NCBI GenBank assembly: GCA_030591195.1
Contig: JAUVBO010000029.1
Location: forward strand, 1 to 11,404
Direction: 5' to 3'
Length of the DNA: 11,404 nucleotides
Source of the DNA: Pseudomonadota bacterium
GTDB lineage: Bacteria; Myxococcota; Polyangia; GCA-2747355; JACKDQ01
Shown: piece by piece, positions 4,799 to 11,404 of the stretch
Numbering within the stretch: position 1 is the first letter of the stretch
How the letters are laid out: every line of letters starts with the position of its first letter
Program-made: the position numbers and the translations under genes
Notes under the pieces: model-generated
Databases searched by the model: none
The model's input: the letters and a program-made list of their open reading frames with translations, nothing else
What the model was told of the DNA's origin: nothing

Positions 4799-5371
4799 CT
4801 ACTTCTTCCGGTCGATCACGCCCGGCTTGAGGTAGACGCTCTCGCCGGTAGTGTTGAAGCGCCACGCGGCCTTGAGCGGTTGCACCGCGAGGAAGTAGCC
4901 CCCGCGGGGCCACTGGGGCACGACCTTGCCGCTCGGGGTCTTGATCGGCTCGTGGCTGACGCCAGGGATCGGCGAGGTCGTCACGCCCTTGAACAGCGAC
5001 ACCTTGAGCAGGTCCTTGCCCTGCTTGGCGCCGGGTGAGTAGTACAGCAGCCCCTGACCCGACACTGGCGGGTTGGCCGCCAGCAGCCGCTTGCCCGAGA
5101 GGGTCGCGCCGTGGGAGCCGACCTCGAGCGCCCGGGTCTGGCCGATCCTGACCATCGCGCCGTTGTTGAACACGGCATAGGGCGTACCGGTCTTGGCCTG
5201 GTAGAGATATCCCCGGGTTCGACCGGCCTTGTTGGTTATCTTGCCGATCGGGGTCATGCCCCGGCCCACCGGGCGGTAGGGGTTGGCCTGGTTCAGCCTG
5301 GCCCGGGCCGCGCCAGCGGTGAGCAAGCAGGTGACTGCAGCGACGAGCATCGCGGTGGTCTTGCGGGACAT
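4799..5371 (-). CDS. Exported protein of unknown function
   Basis: The protein has 190 residues. The start at 5371 is chosen because GGAGGAA (5375-5381) sits five to six bases before this ATG; an in-frame ATG at 5383 would add M-E-E-T and would turn that ribosome-binding site into coding sequence. Residues 1-25 form a signal peptide ending A-R-A. The mature part has no Cys, no membrane helix and a basic, Gly/Lys-rich composition with many short beta-like stretches (for example T-G-T-P-Y-A-V-F-N-N-G and R-G-G-Y-F-L-A-V). No domain family was recognised. It is the first gene of a minus-strand group with the secreted hydrolase and DUF89 phosphatase, and it is divergent from the Cys-rich lipoprotein, so it is probably periplasmic or secreted. 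Confidence 0.65.
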   Translation of the reverse strand: MSRKTTAMLVAAVTCLLTAGAARARLNQANPYRPVGRGMTPIGKITNKAGRTRGYLYQAKTGTPYAVFNNGAMVRIGQTRALEVGSHGATLSGKRLLAANPPVSGQGLLYYSPGAKQGKDLLKVSLFKGVTTSPIPGVSHEPIKTPSGKVVPQWPRGGYFLAVQPLKAAWRFNTTGESVYLKPGVIDRKK

Positions 5372-5374
5372 CGT

Positions 5375-5381
5375 TTCCTCC
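5375..5381 (-). promoter_or_regulatory. Ribosome-binding site deciding the start of the 190-residue protein
   Basis: On the minus strand GGAGGAA precedes the ATG at 5371 at standard spacing. It overlaps the G of the earlier in-frame ATG at 5383, which has only a weak AGGGA upstream of it. Confidence 0.6.
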
Positions 5382-5432
5382 ATGGCTTTCCCTGCCGTGG
5401 CTCGTCCGCGCTGATGGTCGCGCGCAAAACAT

Positions 5433-5449
5433 CGCTGATCGTCTCAGCG
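5433..5449. promoter_or_regulatory. Inverted repeat in the divergent 5372-5554 region
   Basis: CGCTGA-tcgtc-TCAGCG is a perfect 6-bp inverted repeat between the divergent 190-residue gene and the Cys-rich lipoprotein gene. A third CGCTGAT lies at 5409-5415. The placement suits an operator serving either gene, but the arms are short and this is only a candidate. Confidence 0.25.
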
Positions 5450-5488
5450 CCAGGGAATGGCTGCGCTATTCGACGCCGCGCTGCCGGC

Positions 5489-5517
5489 TTGACCACTGCT
5501 CGCGCCTCGGGGACGAT
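5489..5517 (+). promoter_or_regulatory. Candidate promoter for the Cys-rich lipoprotein
   Basis: TTGACC (5489-5494, five of six to the sigma-70 -35 consensus) is followed after 17 bases by GACGAT (5512-5517, only three of six to TATAAT). It would start transcription about 30 bases before the ATG at 5555. The -10 is poor, so this is weak. Confidence 0.25.
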
Positions 5518-5554
5518 GGATCTCAACCCCCCGAACGCAGGAGCGCGTCCTCCG

Positions 5555-6556
5555 ATGTCCCGACTGGCCGGAATCTCCACGCTCGGCGCGCTGCTCGCGC
5601 TGGGCCTGCTTGCCTGCAGTGAAAACAGCAACAACGCTCCCACCTGCCCGGCGGGCTACGCGCCCGACGCCTTGGGCAGGTGCTGCACCCCCCAGGGTAG
5701 CTGCCTCGGGGCGACGCCATGCGGCGCCAACACCACCCAGCAGGCGGGCGGCGGCTGTAGCTGCATCGCGCCGTTCGCCGACTGCAACGGCAACATTGGC
5801 CTGCCCGGCGGCGACGGATGCGAGTGCAACGGTCAGTGTAGCGGCGGCCAGTGCAACGCCTCGATCTGCGATCCGGCGACCAAGTCCGCCTGCGGCAGCC
5901 AGGCCAGCTTCTGCGAGGCGATCTCCCTGCGCTGCACCAGCTGCCCGGCCGGCAAGCACGACTGCGACGGGCTCGGCACCAACGGCTGCGAGAGCGACGA
6001 CGCGAGCTGCGGGGGCGGGGCCGGCCAGTGCAGCGCCACGGCGGCCAACGCCTGCCCGAGCCACGAGCAGTATTGCGACTCGAGCCAGCTGACCTGTCAG
6101 CCGTGTCCCAGCGGGATGCACAACTGCGACGGCCTCGGCCCCTGCGAGAGCACCAAGGACTGCGCGCCGAGCGGCTGCGAGGCCTCCTGCCAGGAAGAAA
6201 ACCAGATCTACTGCGTCAGGGATCCGGCGCGAAACAACCTCTGCACGCCGTGCCTCGAAGATGCCCACTGTCGCGCCAACCCCAGCTCCCGTGGGCCCTT
6301 CTGTGATACCGCGAAGAACCTCTGCTACTGCAAGACCGCCGCCGACTGCGCCGGCGATCGCCGCGGCTCGATCTGCAAGGAAGCGGGCAGCGTCAAGAGC
6401 TGTAGCTGTGACGACGACATCGACTGCAAGGTGCCCGAGTACACCAAGTGCTCACCCACCGTCTTCGGCAACTGCATCAAGCCCTGCAAGACCACCCAGG
6501 ACTGCGACGACCCGGTCAACGAGTACTGCGACGTCGAGTCGGGCCTCTGCTATTGA
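5555..6556 (+). CDS. Cysteine-rich outer-surface lipoprotein
   Basis: The protein has 333 residues. The ATG at 5555 is chosen over an open frame reaching far upstream because it has AGGAG (5539-5543) and begins a proper lipoprotein signal ending L-L-A-C; Cys21 is the lipidated residue. The mature chain holds 48 further Cys (49 in all), an even number that fits complete disulfide pairing. Two modules repeat with a 54-residue period: C-x6-C-x6-C-x2-C-P-x-G-x-H-x-C-D-G-L-G at 113-141 and 167-195. The last third has D-C, Y-C and L-C pairs resembling the small disulfide repeats common in myxobacterial surface proteins. The C-D-G module resembles calcium-binding loops but no ligand set is certain. 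No enzyme domain is seen; a surface or adhesive role is inferred. Confidence 0.8.
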   Translation: MSRLAGISTLGALLALGLLACSENSNNAPTCPAGYAPDALGRCCTPQGSCLGATPCGANTTQQAGGGCSCIAPFADCNGNIGLPGGDGCECNGQCSGGQCNASICDPATKSACGSQASFCEAISLRCTSCPAGKHDCDGLGTNGCESDDASCGGGAGQCSATAANACPSHEQYCDSSQLTCQPCPSGMHNCDGLGPCESTKDCAPSGCEASCQEENQIYCVRDPARNNLCTPCLEDAHCRANPSSRGPFCDTAKNLCYCKTAADCAGDRRGSICKEAGSVKSCSCDDDIDCKVPEYTKCSPTVFGNCIKPCKTTQDCDDPVNEYCDVESGLCY

Positions 6557-6722: not shown

Positions 6723-7154
6723 TCATTTCTCGCTTCGCGAAGGGGGGTCGAGGCGGGTGGCGGTGGCCTCGATGCCACGCTGGCGATTCTCGAGGTCGGC
6801 CTTGATCCGGTCGCAGAGGGTGCCGCAGATCTCGAACACTCGCTCGTCGGCGACACTGTAATATACCTGGTTGCCCTCCTGCTGACGGGAGAGCATCCCG
6901 GCTCGGTGCAGCTGGGAAAGGTGCCGCGAGACGTTGGGCTGGGAGCAGCCGAGCAACCCGCCAATATCGCCAACCGTTCGTGGGCCGTCGCGCAAGAGAT
7001 AGAGGATTCTCAGCCTGGACGGGTCACCCATCGCCCGCAGCCGGGCGGCTACCTCGCTGATCGCCAGCTCGGTCAGCTCCTCGTCGCTTGTCATCGCTGG
7101 CTCATCATCCCGCGCGGCCCATCCGGCTGACCATGTCACCTGTTTGAAATCCAT
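6723..7154 (-). CDS. ArsR/SmtB-family transcriptional repressor
   Basis: The protein has 143 residues from the ATG at 7154, which has GGGAGA (7161-7166) six bases upstream. Alternative in-frame starts are 7208 (without a ribosome-binding site, almost at the predicted transcript start) and 7094 (weak site, close to the core fold). The winged-helix domain spans about 27-105: A-M-G-D-P-S-R-L-R-I-L-Y-L-L (41-54), recognition helix S-Q-P-N-V-S-R-H-L-S-Q-L (71-82), wing G-N-Q-V-Y-Y-S-V (94-101). The alpha3 metal motif E-L-C-V-C-D-L of classic arsenic/cadmium sensors is absent. Candidate sensing residues are Cys110 and Cys114 (C-G-T-L-C) and Cys70 next to the recognition helix, so metal, redox or sulfur sensing are all possible. 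It is divergent from the transporter operon and very likely represses both through the palindrome at 7215-7250. Confidence 0.88.
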   Translation of the reverse strand: MDFKQVTWSAGWAARDDEPAMTSDEELTELAISEVAARLRAMGDPSRLRILYLLRDGPRTVGDIGGLLGCSQPNVSRHLSQLHRAGMLSRQQEGNQVYYSVADERVFEICGTLCDRIKADLENRQRGIEATATRLDPPSRSEK

Positions 7155-7160
7155 ACTTAT

Positions 7161-7166
7161 TCTCCC
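7161..7166 (-). promoter_or_regulatory. Ribosome-binding site deciding the arsR start
   Basis: GGGAGA on the minus strand lies six bases upstream of the ATG at 7154. It is the best such site among the three possible in-frame starts (7208, 7154, 7094). Confidence 0.6.
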
Positions 7167-7216
7167 GGGTAGTTCAGTAACAGTCAACGGGCATGCAAAT
7201 TTTCTCAACCTTGCAC

Positions 7217-7245
7217 TTGACTATATGCGAATGTGTGCATACAGT
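7217..7245 (+). promoter_or_regulatory. Predicted sigma-70 promoter of the transporter operon
   Basis: TTGACT (7217-7222, five of six) and TACAGT (7240-7245, four of six) are 17 bases apart. Transcription would begin near 7252, giving a leader of about 46 bases that carries the GGAGGAA site of the transporter. Confidence 0.65.
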
Positions 7246-7248
7246 CAA
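7220..7248 (-). promoter_or_regulatory. Predicted sigma-70 promoter of arsR
   Basis: On the minus strand TTGACT (7248-7243, five of six) and TATAGT (7225-7220, five of six) are 17 bases apart. Transcription would begin near 7213, giving a leader of about 59 bases to the ATG at 7154. It shares the same DNA as the opposite promoter, so RNA polymerase can serve only one direction at a time. Confidence 0.65.
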
Positions 7249-7283
7249 GTTACTGATGGAAGCGAGACAGAGTATTGGACAAC

Positions 7284-7297: not shown

Positions 7298-9946
7298 ATG
7301 AGAGATCGGATCGTTCGGTTCGCCACCACCCACCCCAAGAAGGTCTTTCTCACGGTCGTGATCTTGGTCGCCGCCCTCGGCTCGCAGATGGTCCGGGTGG
7401 TGGTCGACACCGATCCCCAGAACATGCTGCCGGCCGATCAGGCCGAGCGACTGTTTCACAACCGGAGCAAGGAGACCTTCGCCCTGCACGACATGCTCGT
7501 GGTGGGCGTGGTCAACGACGAGGACGAGGACGGCGTCTTCAACCCGCAGTCCCTCGCCCGGATCCACGCCTTGAGCCGGGCGATCGCCAAGATCGACGGC
7601 GTGATCAAGCGCGACCTGCTGTCACCCTCGACGGTCGACAAGGTAACCCCGGAGGGCATGGGGACCGTGCGTTTCGCCTGGCTGCTGGACAAGATCCCCG
7701 TGACCCGGGCCGAGGCGCGCAGGGTGCGCGACGACGCGATGCGCCTGTCGATGCTCAAGGGCACGCTGGTCAGCGACAGCGGCAAGGCGGTGGCGATGTA
7801 CGTGCCGCTCGCGGACAAGAGCCAGAGTCACCGCATCTCCCAGGAGATCAAGCAGGTGGTCGCCGGCTACAGCGGCGCCGAGCGCTACTTCGTCACCGGC
7901 CTGCCGGTGGCCGAGGACACCTTCGGCGTCGAGATGTTCGTCCAGATGGCGATCTCGGCGCCGATGGCCGCGCTGGTGATCTTCATCATCCTTTGGTGGT
8001 TCTTCCGCAGCATCCCGCTGATCACCGCGCCGATGCTGCTGGCGATGTCCACCGTCGTGGTCACGATGGGCGCGCTGATCGGCCTCGGCTTCACCGTCCA
8101 CATCATGAGCTCGATGATCCCGATCTTCCTGATGCCGATCGCGGTCGTCAACTCGGTGCACATCCTCAGCGAGTTCTCTGACAGCTACCGTGCCGGTGCG
8201 GACAAGCGTCAGGTGATGCACGGCGTGATGAAGAAGCTCTTCACGCCGATGCTGTACACCTCGCTGACCACCATCGCCGGCTTCGGCTCGCTGGCCCTGG
8301 CGCCGATTCCACCGGTGCGCGTCTTCGGCGCCTTCGTTGCGATCGGCGTGGCGGTCTCGTTCCTGCTGAGCGTGATCTTCATCCCGGCCTACGTCGCCAG
8401 CCTCTCCGACAAGACCCTCGCCCGCCTGCCGGGCAGCGACGACAAGGATCCCGTCGATGGCGAGGCCCCCGAGGCGCCGCGCGGGCTGCTCGCCCGCCTG
8501 CTGCCGCGGGTCGGCCGCTGGTCGGTGTCCCACTCCCACGCGGTGATCGTCGGCATGGTGGCGCTCTCGGCGATCAGCGCCTACGGCATCTCCCAGATCA
8601 ACATCAACGACAACCCGGTGCTGTGGTTCAAGCCGACCCACGAGCTCCGCGTGGCCGACCGGGTGCTGAACAAGCACTTCGCCGGCACCTACCCGGCCTA
8701 CCTGGTCGTCTCCAAGCAGGGCGCAGAGCCCGAGCTGAAGCTCGAGCGGGCGGTCGCGGCCGCCCTGGCCAAGGCCGAGGACCAGGCTGCCGCGAAGCGG
8801 GTCGCCGCGCGCTACCAGGCGATCGCCGCGGCGGTCAAGGACGACCGCTTCGACCAGCGCGTGACCCAGCTGATCGAGAAGGTCGACGGCGAGCTCGAGC
8901 GGGCGGCCGAGGGGCAGGACGCCGCCTGGGAGGCGGTGATGGGTGCGCTGGAGCAGAGCCAGGCCGACCACAAGTACTTCCAGAGCCCGGCGGCGCTGGC
9001 GTTTCTTGCCGGCCTGCAGGCCGAGCTCGGCCGGTCCGCGGTGGTGGGCAAGACCACCTCGCTGGCCGATGTGGTCAAGACCCTCTACCGCGACCTGCAC
9101 GACGGTTCGGCCAAGTACTACAAGGTGCCCGCGACCGACCGAGCGGTGGCCCAGAGCCTGCTGACATACCAGTCGTCCCACCGGCCCCAGGACCTCTGGC
9201 ACTTCGTCACCCCGGACATGCGGCAGGCCTCCGTCTGGGTCCAGCTCAAGAGCGGCGACAACCAGAGCATGATGGGCGTCGTCGACCGGATGAAGACCTA
9301 CCTCGACCAGCACCCGGCGCCCGCTGGCGTGCAGGTGCGCTGGGCCGGAATGACCTACCTCAACGTGGTCTGGCAGCAGGCGATGGTCAGCGGGATGCTC
9401 AAGAGCCTGCTCGGTTCGTTCGTCATCGTGCTGGTGATGATGATCTTTCTCTTCCGCTCGGTGCTCTTCGGGCTGCTGTCGATGATCCCGCTCTCGGTGA
9501 CGATCACGATGATCTACGGGCTGATCGGCCTGCTCGGCAAAGACTACGACATGCCAGTGGCGGTGCTGTCGGCGATGACCCTCGGCCTGTCGGTGGACTT
9601 CGCGATCCACTTCCTCCAGCGCGCGCGCCGGATCCAGCAACGCCTGGGTGACTGGCGCGCCACGCTCGAGGCGATGTACCACGGGCCCGGCCGGGCGATC
9701 GCCCGCAACGCGATCGTGATCGCCTTCGGCTTCTTGCCCCTGCTCGCCGCGCCGCTGGTGCCCTACAACACCGTCGGCTTCTTCATGGCCGCGATCATGG
9801 CCGTCTCGTCGGCGGTGACGCTGGTGTTGCTGCCTTCGGCGATGAACCTGCTCTCGCGCTGGCTCAAGCCGCTGCCGCAGGCTGACCACCCCGTGTCCCA
9901 AACGAACAACGAAAGCAACAACGAGCTCGCGCTCGAACGGAACTGA
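7298..9946 (+). CDS. MMPL/RND-superfamily inner-membrane exporter
   Basis: The protein has 882 residues with the internal two-fold plan of RND proteins. The first half has one helix at about 16-36, a periplasmic domain to about 212, then five helices from about 215 to 370, including V-N-S-V-H-I-L-S-E-F. The second half has a helix at about 414-435, a large periplasmic domain to about 697, then five helices at about 700-865, including L-S-V-D-F-A-I-H-F-L. These S-V-x-(F/H)-x-(I/H)-(L/F) signatures are those of MMPL-type 'predicted exporters' (COG1033), which include hopanoid and lipid transporters; the Asp in the second half is Asn in the first, so proton coupling may rest on the second half. 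Residues about 476-560 form a charged Ala/Glu/Lys-rich helical insertion. It is the first gene of the operon, with the LolA-like gene 16 bases downstream. The cargo is unknown, probably hydrophobic. Confidence 0.88.
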   Translation: MRDRIVRFATTHPKKVFLTVVILVAALGSQMVRVVVDTDPQNMLPADQAERLFHNRSKETFALHDMLVVGVVNDEDEDGVFNPQSLARIHALSRAIAKIDGVIKRDLLSPSTVDKVTPEGMGTVRFAWLLDKIPVTRAEARRVRDDAMRLSMLKGTLVSDSGKAVAMYVPLADKSQSHRISQEIKQVVAGYSGAERYFVTGLPVAEDTFGVEMFVQMAISAPMAALVIFIILWWFFRSIPLITAPMLLAMSTVVVTMGALIGLGFTVHIMSSMIPIFLMPIAVVNSVHILSEFSDSYRAGADKRQVMHGVMKKLFTPMLYTSLTTIAGFGSLALAPIPPVRVFGAFVAIGVAVSFLLSVIFIPAYVASLSDKTLARLPGSDDKDPVDGEAPEAPRGLLARLLPRVGRWSVSHSHAVIVGMVALSAISAYGISQININDNPVLWFKPTHELRVADRVLNKHFAGTYPAYLVVSKQGAEPELKLERAVAAALAKAEDQAAAKRVAARYQAIAAAVKDDRFDQRVTQLIEKVDGELERAAEGQDAAWEAVMGALEQSQADHKYFQSPAALAFLAGLQAELGRSAVVGKTTSLADVVKTLYRDLHDGSAKYYKVPATDRAVAQSLLTYQSSHRPQDLWHFVTPDMRQASVWVQLKSGDNQSMMGVVDRMKTYLDQHPAPAGVQVRWAGMTYLNVVWQQAMVSGMLKSLLGSFVIVLVMMIFLFRSVLFGLLSMIPLSVTITMIYGLIGLLGKDYDMPVAVLSAMTLGLSVDFAIHFLQRARRIQQRLGDWRATLEAMYHGPGRAIARNAIVIAFGFLPLLAAPLVPYNTVGFFMAAIMAVSSAVTLVLLPSAMNLLSRWLKPLPQADHPVSQTNNESNNELALERN

Positions 9947-9962: not shown

Positions 9963-10769
9963 ATGAACCGCACCACGCTCAAGAGTGTTCTCTTCGGACT
10001 GATCGCCACCGGGCTGGCGCTGACCACCGGTGACGCCCGCGCGGCGAACGTCAAGACGATCGTGCAGAAGGCGAGCAACGCGGCCTACTACCAGGGCAGC
10101 GACGGCCGGGCGAAGGTCCGGATGACCATCGTCGACGCCAAGGGGCGCAAGCGGGTCCGCCAGTTCACGATCCTCCGTCGTAACGTCACCAAGGGCGGAG
10201 ACCAGCACTATCTGGTGCTCTTCACCCGCCCCGCAGACGTGCGCCGCACGGTCTTCCTCGTCTCGAAGCACATCAAGCGCGGCGACGACCGCTGGATGTA
10301 CCTGCCGGCCCTCGACCTGGTCAAGCGCATCGCCGCCTCGGACAAGCGCACCAGCTTCGTCGGCTCGCACTTCCTCTACGAGGACATCTCGGGCCGTGGG
10401 CTGGCCGAGGACCGGCACCAGCTGATCAAGACCACCGCCAAGCACTACGTCGTCCGGGCCACGCCGAAGCGCGCCGGAGGGGTCGAGTTCAAGAGCTACA
10501 CGGTGTGGATCGACAAGAGCAGCTACCTGCCGCTGAAGATGGAGTACGTCGACCAGGCGGGCAAGATCTACCGCCGGATCGAGGCGCTCAAGGTCGAGAC
10601 GGTCGACGGCCTGCCCACGGTGACGAAGATGAAGGCCAGCGATCTGGCCTCGGGCGGCTACACGATCTCCGAGATGAAGGGCATCAAGTACAACATCGAC
10701 GTGCCCCTGCAGGTCTTCGCCGAGCGCTCCCTGCGCAACCCGCCGCGCAAGTGGTTCCGCAAGCGCTAG
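9963..10769 (+). CDS. LolA-like outer-membrane lipoprotein-sorting family protein
   Basis: The protein has 268 residues. GGAAGG (9952-9957) precedes the ATG. The signal peptide ends A-R-A at about residue 27 and no Cys follows, so this is a soluble periplasmic protein. The central signature D-R-W-M-Y-L-P-A-L-D-L-V-K-R-I-A (starting near residue 102), followed by S-F-V-G-S-H-F-L-Y-E-D-I, is typical of the LolA-like family often called 'outer membrane lipoprotein-sorting protein' (Pfam LolA_like, PF17131), whose open beta-barrel is thought to carry a lipid or lipidated molecule. Later strands (Y-T-V-W-I-D-K-S-S-Y-L-P-L-K-M-E-Y) fit the same fold. Members are frequently next to MMPL exporters, as here. 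Inferred role: taking cargo from the inner-membrane exporter across the periplasm. Confidence 0.85.
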   Translation: MNRTTLKSVLFGLIATGLALTTGDARAANVKTIVQKASNAAYYQGSDGRAKVRMTIVDAKGRKRVRQFTILRRNVTKGGDQHYLVLFTRPADVRRTVFLVSKHIKRGDDRWMYLPALDLVKRIAASDKRTSFVGSHFLYEDISGRGLAEDRHQLIKTTAKHYVVRATPKRAGGVEFKSYTVWIDKSSYLPLKMEYVDQAGKIYRRIEALKVETVDGLPTVTKMKASDLASGGYTISEMKGIKYNIDVPLQVFAERSLRNPPRKWFRKR

Positions 10770-10816
10770 TGCCCAGTGGCCCCAGTGCCCGCCGACAACG
10801 CGAAAGGGATCGAGCG

Positions 10817-11404
10817 ATGAGAAGAGGCAGCCGGACAACGAAACCAACCAGGCGCAGCCGTGGCGGCCTCGAGGCGGCCCTGCTGCTCGTCCTCGTCGTC
10901 GGCGTCGCCCACGCTGGCGACGACGACTGGGGCGATGACGACGACGACCAGACCGCCCCGACGGTCGAGCTGCACGGCTTCGTCGAGGCCGCCGGATCGG
11001 GCCGTCTGATCGACGACCCGACGACGCGCAACGAGTTCAACATGGGCGAGGCGCGCTTTCGTCTCGAGGTCCGCCACGAGCGCGACGCGGGCTCGCTGTC
11101 TTTCAAGGGCGACCTGCTCGCCGACGGATTGACCAACGCGGTGAGCGTCGACATCCGCGAGGCGCTGGTGAGCTTCTCGCCCTGGAGCTTCCTCGACGTC
11201 AAGGTCGGCCGGCAGGTGCTGACCTGGGGGACGGGCGACCTGCTGTTCCTCAACGACCTCTTTCCCAAGGACTGGGTCTCGTTCTTCATCGGGCGGGACG
11301 ACGAGTACCTCAAGGCCCCGTCGAACGCGCTCAAGGTGAGCCTGTTCCTGCCGAAGGTCTTCAACATCGACCTCGCCTGGTCGCTGATCTACGAGCCCGA
11401 TCGC
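10817..11404 (+). CDS. Outer-membrane beta-barrel protein of the exporter operon (partial)
   Basis: Open from the ATG at 10817 to the window end, 196 codons without stop. AAGGGA (10804-10809) lies seven bases before the ATG. A signal peptide with a basic start and hydrophobic core ends V-A-H-A, followed by an acidic run rich in Asp (about residues 35-45). Then come alternating beta-strand patterns typical of porins: V-E-L-H-G-F-V-E-A, F-N-M-G-E-A-R-F-R-L-E-V, and the strong motif V-G-R-Q-V-L-T-W-G-T-G-D, with F-L-N-D-L-F-P-K-D-W and later Y-L-K-A-P-S-N-A-L-K. Such motifs mark a DUF1302-like class of barrels found beside MMPL exporters; the family name is not certain. It lies 47 bases after the LolA-like gene and completes an inner-membrane, periplasm and outer-membrane set. 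Confidence 0.75.
   Translation, partial: MRRGSRTTKPTRRSRGGLEAALLLVLVVGVAHAGDDDWGDDDDDQTAPTVELHGFVEAAGSGRLIDDPTTRNEFNMGEARFRLEVRHERDAGSLSFKGDLLADGLTNAVSVDIREALVSFSPWSFLDVKVGRQVLTWGTGDLLFLNDLFPKDWVSFFIGRDDEYLKAPSNALKVSLFLPKVFNIDLAWSLIYEPDR

What the first reader, a model, noticed from the sequence alone, without database searches (positions are those of the whole stretch)
7215..7250. One palindrome serves as operator and as two face-to-face promoters
The 14-bp arms each hold TTGACT, and each arm also holds the -10 hexamer for the opposite strand, both with 17-bp spacing. The -35 of one promoter overlaps the -10 of the other by three bases, so the two cannot be occupied together. A dimeric ArsR protein on this symmetric site would close both at once. 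The design couples repressor and exporter synthesis in a single 36-bp element.
Basis: partly seen in the sequence, partly recalled or inferred. Interest (0 to 1): 0.72.

Follow-up and report, generated by a model that had tools for sequence, protein, structure and literature searches.

The report
ArsR operator inside superimposed divergent promoters
A 36-base stretch of DNA appears to hold one repressor-binding site and two overlapping promoters pointing away from each other, so that one repressor could shut off both its own gene and a membrane-exporter gene; this is a neat but already known kind of bacterial switch.

Summary
Arms 7215-7228 and 7237-7250 pair at 13 of 14 positions around 8 bp; TTGACT-17-TACAGT (+) and TTGACT-17-TATAGT (-) lie where stated, each -35 sharing three bases with the opposite -10. 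The operator is probably only the inner 18 bp, TATGC-N8-GCATA (7224-7241). That exact motif stands upstream of 4 of 65 related arsR genes examined: 4 of 6 whose recognition helix ends SRHL (as here) and 0 of 59 others; it is absent from about 235 kb of surrounding DNA. The two promoters are not independent evidence, since a palindrome mirrors one into the other. The third promoter-like site overlaps the probable arsR Shine-Dalgarno sequence. Divergent promoters with coinciding boxes (pLS20, PMC4207663) and one repressor closing both directions (AcrR, PMC12825309) are already described. Verdict: real, probably functional, new member of a known kind. Binding and start sites remain inferred.

The parts
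7215..7250 (.). composite 36-bp palindrome (14-8-14, 13 of 14 paired)
7224..7241 (.). probable ArsR operator core TATGC-N8-GCATA
   Evidence: exact motif upstream of arsR in L033, L048, L049, L050 (4 of 65 loci); none in about 235 kb of the same loci outside the upstream stretches; single match in the window with up to 2 mismatches, where 1.09 are expected by chance, but this one has none
7217..7245 (+). promoter for the exporter gene: TTGACT 7217-7222, 17 bp, TACAGT 7240-7245; start inferred near 7252
   Evidence: 9 of 12
7220..7248 (-). promoter for arsR: TTGACT 7248-7243, 17 bp, TATAGT 7225-7220; start inferred near 7213
   Evidence: 10 of 12
7159..7187 (-). third promoter-like site; its -10 (GAGAAT) overlaps the arsR Shine-Dalgarno-like GGGAG 7162-7166, so probably not a promoter
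6723..7154 (-). ArsR-family repressor gene, 143 aa from ATG 7154 (alternative ATG at 7094, near where relatives start); recognition helix SQPNVSRHL; ICGTLC near the end of the conserved domain
7298..9946 (+). MMPL/HAE3-type RND exporter, 882 aa, preceded by GGAGG
9963..10769 (+). LolA-like protein (PF17131), probably the same operon (inferred from spacing)
10505..11404 (+). open frame running off the contig whose later part reads like the third gene of L080-L083; true start not determined, no Pfam match
   Evidence: likeness judged by eye

Best explanation
The 36-bp element is a self-regulated switch. A dimer of the adjacent ArsR-family protein binds the inner 18 bp (TATGC-N8-GCATA). This site lies in the spacers of both promoters and takes in the first two bases (TA) of each -10, so one bound dimer would exclude RNA polymerase from both strands. 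When an inducer reaches the protein (perhaps at its CxxxC pair), both promoters open; polymerase can then occupy only one orientation at a time, giving arsR leftwards and the MMPL exporter with its LolA-like partner rightwards. Shown here: anatomy, promoter-like scores, regulator-motif association. Inferred: binding, repression of both directions, mutual exclusion, start sites, inducer.
For: Palindrome and hexamers; the window's only promoter-like sites lie here; overlapping opposed pair in 8 of 5000 shuffles; 42% GC at 7130-7260 in a 69% GC window. Operator core: of 65 ArsR loci, 4 carry the exact motif in the 200 bp upstream; among gaps 0-20 the only other upstream match is a gap-0 one inside L050's own site; none in about 235 kb of the rest of these loci; 300 shuffles of the upstream stretches average 0.01 loci, maximum 1. 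4 of 6 SRHL-helix loci have it, 0 of 59 others. L048-L050 are the top three of the 61 places listed, of which 30 were fetched. Gene assignments.
Against: L049 and L050 share gene order and look closely related, so independent instances are about three. L055 and L056 have SRHL without the motif. The same TATGC-N8-GCATA also occurs beside a padR gene (L036) and upstream of tauE near an ArsR with another helix (L084), so the motif is no proof of ArsR binding. A refined motif is hardly enriched: 10 of 299 genomes against 6 of 299 for the reversed control. Start sites are unmapped; the + strand -10 matches 4 of 6.
Confidence: 0.72

Rival explanations
1. Only one direction is a real promoter. The palindrome mirrors its hexamers onto the other strand, and the second promoter is a by-product with little activity.
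For: In random palindromes of this shape, 676 of the 2021 that had any promoter had one on both strands. The + strand -10 (TACAGT) matches 4 of 6. The relatives keep the operator without the TTGACT mirror.
Against: Each gene has a Shine-Dalgarno-like sequence and needs a promoter; apart from the doubtful third site, no site of 9 of 12 or better is found in the gap. The outer arms are perfectly symmetric for 8 bp beyond the operator core.
Confidence: 0.15
2. The whole 36 bp is the operator, for instance for two ArsR dimers or a longer contact, and the TTGACT hexamers are symmetric because the protein reads them.
For: The outer 8 bp of each arm are perfectly complementary (7215-7222 / 7243-7250); ACAGTCAA recurs at 7180-7187.
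Against: The four relatives with the core lack the TTGACT/AGTCAA pair; TTGACT matches 5 of 6 of the -35 consensus and is spaced as a promoter needs.
Confidence: 0.12
3. The inner palindrome is bound by another winged-helix repressor, such as a PadR-type protein, not by the adjacent ArsR.
For: A padR gene in L036 sits beside the same TATGC-N8-GCATA.
Against: The adjacent regulator here is an ArsR with the SRHL helix that tracks with this motif.
Confidence: 0.06

Closest known systems
pLS20 Pr/Pc overlapping divergent promoters with RcoLS20 (PMC4207663; section 10 and passages read)
   Same: Divergent promoters whose -10 and -35 boxes are thought by the authors to correspond exactly to each other's -35 and -10; the mapped start of Pr lies 6 bp upstream of the -35 of Pc; they serve regulator and target.
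   Different: RcoLS20 represses one promoter and both activates and represses its own, with DNA looping; promoter strengths differ. Family and operator layout differ from a single ArsR palindrome (operator sites in passages only).
E. coli PacrA/acrR bidirectional promoter with AcrR (PMC12825309; abstract, introduction and passages read)
   Same: One repressor lowers both the repressor and the exporter transcript; opposed polymerases cannot bind together.
   Different: The shared element is a -10; usual start-to-start distances there are 18, 10 and 23 bp, against about 39 bp predicted here. AcrR is of the TetR family (recalled).
tetR/tetA operon (PMC3037858, passages read; Bertrand 1983 seen only as a title in the reference list of PMC11686294)
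   Same: Repressor and exporter driven from promoters that overlap the operators; repressor on tetO1 shuts both genes.
   Different: Two operators and three promoters; TetR family.
SoxR/sHdrR ArsR-type repressors of sulfur oxidation (PMC10451225; passages read)
   Same: ArsR-type repressors that bind regions between divergent genes; L048-L050, which share this operator core, lie beside a soxC-like gene (Pfam for L049; L048 and L050 by eye).
   Different: They use two conserved cysteines (Cys50, Cys116 in H. denitrificans SoxR) and respond to polysulfide. The window protein keeps CxxxC but lacks the earlier cysteine shared by P0002-P0007.
E. coli bioA/bioB operator with BirA (recalled; no text on it read)
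   Same: One palindromic operator over two opposed promoters (recalled).
   Different: BirA is not ArsR; geometry recalled only.

Membership tests
ArsR/SmtB family | ArsR-type winged HTH above curated cut-off | tested here: met
   PF01022 57.6 bits (cut-off 22), NF033788 85.8 bits (cut-off 55)
ArsR/SmtB family | membership of a named sensor subtype (TsoR, CmtR, BigR) | tested here: not met
   58.3 of 115, 50.7 of 150 and 42.5 of 155 bits
ArsR/SmtB family | ligand-binding residues | tested here: inconclusive
   CxxxC shared with P0002-P0007; the earlier cysteine of those six is missing here
MMPL/HAE3 RND exporter | MMPL domain above cut-off | tested here: met
   PF03176 115 bits (cut-off 20.5); but the best NCBIfam model, TIGR00921 (HAE3), is below its cut-off, 170.9 of 351.9
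Overlapping divergent promoters with a common operator | two sigma70-like promoters on opposite strands sharing bases | tested here: met
   sequence match only
Overlapping divergent promoters with a common operator | transcription in both directions from the element | not testable with these tools
   needs 5'-end mapping
Overlapping divergent promoters with a common operator | repressor bound over both promoters | tested here: inconclusive
   motif association only
Bidirectional promoter with shared -10 (PMC12825309) | start sites either side of or within a shared -10, commonly 10, 18 or 23 bp apart | tested here: not met
   -35 overlaps the opposite -10 instead; predicted distance 39 bp

The most novel reading that the evidence does not exclude
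Mirror promoters of this kind (TTGACT overlapping the opposite -10 by three bases, both spacers 17, a repressor palindrome on the common axis) are a recurrent solution reached independently by unrelated repressor families. The only two near matches to the full palindrome in 398 genomes lie between a tetR gene and a divergent neighbour (L037, promoter-like on both strands, 9 and 8 of 12) and between a padR gene and a divergent neighbour (L036, promoter-like on one strand only, 8 of 12). I lowered the probability from 0.15 to 0.12 on recheck because L036 passes on one strand only.
Probability: 0.12. Interest if true: 0.5.

Novelty: new member of a known kind. Interest (0 to 1): 0.3.

Why it matters
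It is a compact case in which operator and promoter parts can be told apart by comparison: the operator core goes with the repressor subgroup, the superimposed promoters do not. It gives a testable operator for an uncharacterised ArsR subgroup and points to ArsR control of an MMPL/LolA-like export operon. The principle itself is not new.

Tried and rejected
Optimal-register idea: I expected a three-base -35/-10 overlap to be the register in which two sigma70 promoters fit best. Rejected: that offset has four conflicts (20 of 24 at best) while others allow 23-24. The window has 19.

Promoter skeleton: TTGACWNTA-Nk-TANWGTCAA, k 7-21, in 398 genomes gave 10 sites in 10 genomes spread over k; the reversed control gave more (21 sites in 19 genomes by my count). 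The single k=14 hit (L038) lies inside a long frame that reads like a recombinase. No enrichment.

Full palindrome with up to 3 mismatches in the same 398 genomes: 2 genomes (L036, L037), both between a regulator gene and a likely divergent gene (neighbours by eye; regulators by Pfam); the reversed control also hit 2 genomes, both inside long open frames. Equal counts, different places, too few to conclude.

Refined motif TATGCGNATNNRYGCATA: 10 of 299 genomes, reversed control 6 of 299. Two of the ten are the L049 and L050 sites again; L084 precedes a TauE gene with an arsR gene nearby; in the printed frames of the other seven I saw no arsR by eye. The refinement is doubtful: L033 and L048 fit it in only one of two equally valid orientations. 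Of 11 ArsR-like matches in L084's genome, the two I looked at have SQHL helices.

Exporter relatives: 4 of 299 genomes at E<=1e-150 (at most three candidates per genome were scored); all four are followed by a LolA-like gene by eye (Pfam-checked for L083 only); 1 of 4 (L083) has a divergent arsR, without this operator. MMPL in viral contigs: nothing. Genome contigs with ArsR: 5 weak relatives.

One search listed more matches than it showed; 30 loci were fetched. Literature: nine of ten searches used; no paper on an ArsR-MMPL pair appeared.

Full report
The window is an 11,404-base contig for which no whole genome is held. The two closest exporter relatives that carry an organism name come from a Deltaproteobacteria and a Myxococcota record, so the host is probably of that kind (inference).

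Observation. The palindrome, hexamers, spacings and three-base overlaps are as described. A palindrome with at least 13 of 14 pairs occurs once in the window and arises in 1 of 300 shuffles of the surrounding 300 bp, but in 5 of 60 shuffles of the whole window. The promoter evidence is stronger: three promoter-like sites against 0.3 expected, all in this gap, and an opposed overlapping pair, each at least 9 of 12, in 8 of 5000 shuffles of the gap. The two promoters should not be counted as two coincidences: of 200,000 random palindromes of this shape, 2021 had a promoter on at least one strand and 676 of these had both.

Genes. Leftwards lies an ArsR-family gene, probably from ATG 7154 with GGGAG seven bases before it; relatives begin near the later ATG at 7094. 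Rightwards lie an 882-aa MMPL/HAE3-type exporter from ATG 7298 with GGAGG before it, a LolA-like protein, and an open frame running off the contig. The third promoter-like site uses GAGAAT, which overlaps the arsR Shine-Dalgarno-like sequence, so I discount it.

Which part is the operator? I aligned the ArsR with near relatives and searched 398 genomes of the phylum of L003 with that alignment: 57 of 398 matched, 61 places were listed and 30 fetched. These 30 were pooled with 35 loci (5; 30). All 65 were examined; L001 and L034 are the same place and L025-L027 look alike, leaving 62 distinct upstream stretches. Exact TATGC-N8-GCATA stands upstream of arsR in L033, L048, L049 and L050. Scanning gaps 0 to 20, gap 8 gives these four; the only other upstream match is a gap-0 one inside L050's own site. 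The remaining sequence of the loci (about 235 kb) holds none at any of these gaps, and 300 shuffles of the upstream stretches average 0.01 loci, maximum 1. By recognition helix, 4 of 6 SRHL loci have the motif and 0 of 59 others. The two SRHL exceptions, L055 and L056, read TAAN[VI]SRHL, whereas the four positives and the window have Q at the second place (SQ or AQ). L049 and L050 have the same gene order, so about three instances are independent. L033 lacks the CxxxC pair.

None of the four sites has the TTGACT/AGTCAA pair at its flanks. L049 does have a promoter-like TTGACC-19-TATAGT (10 of 12) towards the ABC-permease genes, beside the operator rather than across it. So the inner 18 bp is what goes with the repressor, and the outer parts here are best read as promoter hexamers particular to this locus. 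A divergent arsR beside MMPL and a LolA-like gene is found in 1 of 4 exporter loci (L083), with an unlike palindrome and other, partly overlapping promoter candidates.

Mechanism. A dimer on 7224-7241 lies in both spacers and takes in the TA of each -10, so it should exclude polymerase from both strands; once an inducer releases it, the two promoters would compete for polymerase. Binding, start sites and inducer are inferred. L048-L050 lie beside soxC-like genes (Pfam molybdopterin oxidoreductase for L049; the others by eye), and L033 lies near frames that read like sulfur-metabolism proteins (by eye). The subgroup may therefore sense sulfur species or thiol-reactive compounds, but the window protein lacks one cysteine common to P0002-P0007, so its signal may differ.

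Against a special status: the same TATGC-N8-GCATA also occurs beside a padR gene (L036); the refined motif is hardly enriched over its control (10 against 6 of 299 genomes); the mirror-promoter skeleton is less frequent than its control; and the register is not the best-fitting one. In favour of a wider pattern: the only two near matches to the full palindrome in 398 genomes lie between tetR or padR genes (Pfam) and likely divergent neighbours, L037 with promoter-like sites on both strands and L036 on one, while the two control matches lie inside long open frames. Counts are equal and small, so this stays a lead.

Known precedents. In pLS20 the authors favour Pr boxes that correspond exactly to the Pc boxes, and the mapped Pr start lies 6 bp upstream of the Pc -35 (PMC4207663, section 10). 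AcrR represses both transcripts of the acrA/acrR bidirectional promoter, and opposed polymerases cannot bind together (PMC12825309). The tet operon has promoters and operators overlapping between repressor and exporter (PMC3037858 passages). The present element is a clean, symmetric candidate of that kind, with an ArsR operator on the common axis.

Noticed in passing
window 7174-7181 / 7249-7256 and 7180-7187 / 7241-7248: A second inverted repeat (TCAGTAAC / GTTACTGA, 67 nt apart) and a direct repeat (ACAGTCAA) flank or overlap the palindrome; possibly chance, a relic of duplication or a second weak site.
   Followed up: partly
L083 3990-4101: An arsR gene stands divergent from an MMPL-LolA-like operon, with palindrome ATGCTAAT-N6-ATTAGCAT and promoter candidates that overlap: same gene logic, other operator.
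   Followed up: partly
L049 692-1433, L050 689-1431: The operator core lies between divergent ABC-permease genes (Pfam for L049; modB-like by eye) and arsR followed by a soxC-like gene.
   Followed up: partly
L084 1486-1518: TATGCATATATTCGCATA stands 14 bp upstream of a TauE/SafE sulfite-exporter frame; an ArsR gene nearby has helix SQHL, not SRHL.
   Followed up: partly
L085, L086 and L087 near 1501: Sites with TATGCG...CGCATA next to AAAGTCAA or TTGACT; in L086 the next frame reads like PadR by eye.
   Followed up: no
window 5111-6556: The later part of this frame is rich in cysteine repeats and may be a secreted Cys-rich protein (by eye).
   Followed up: no
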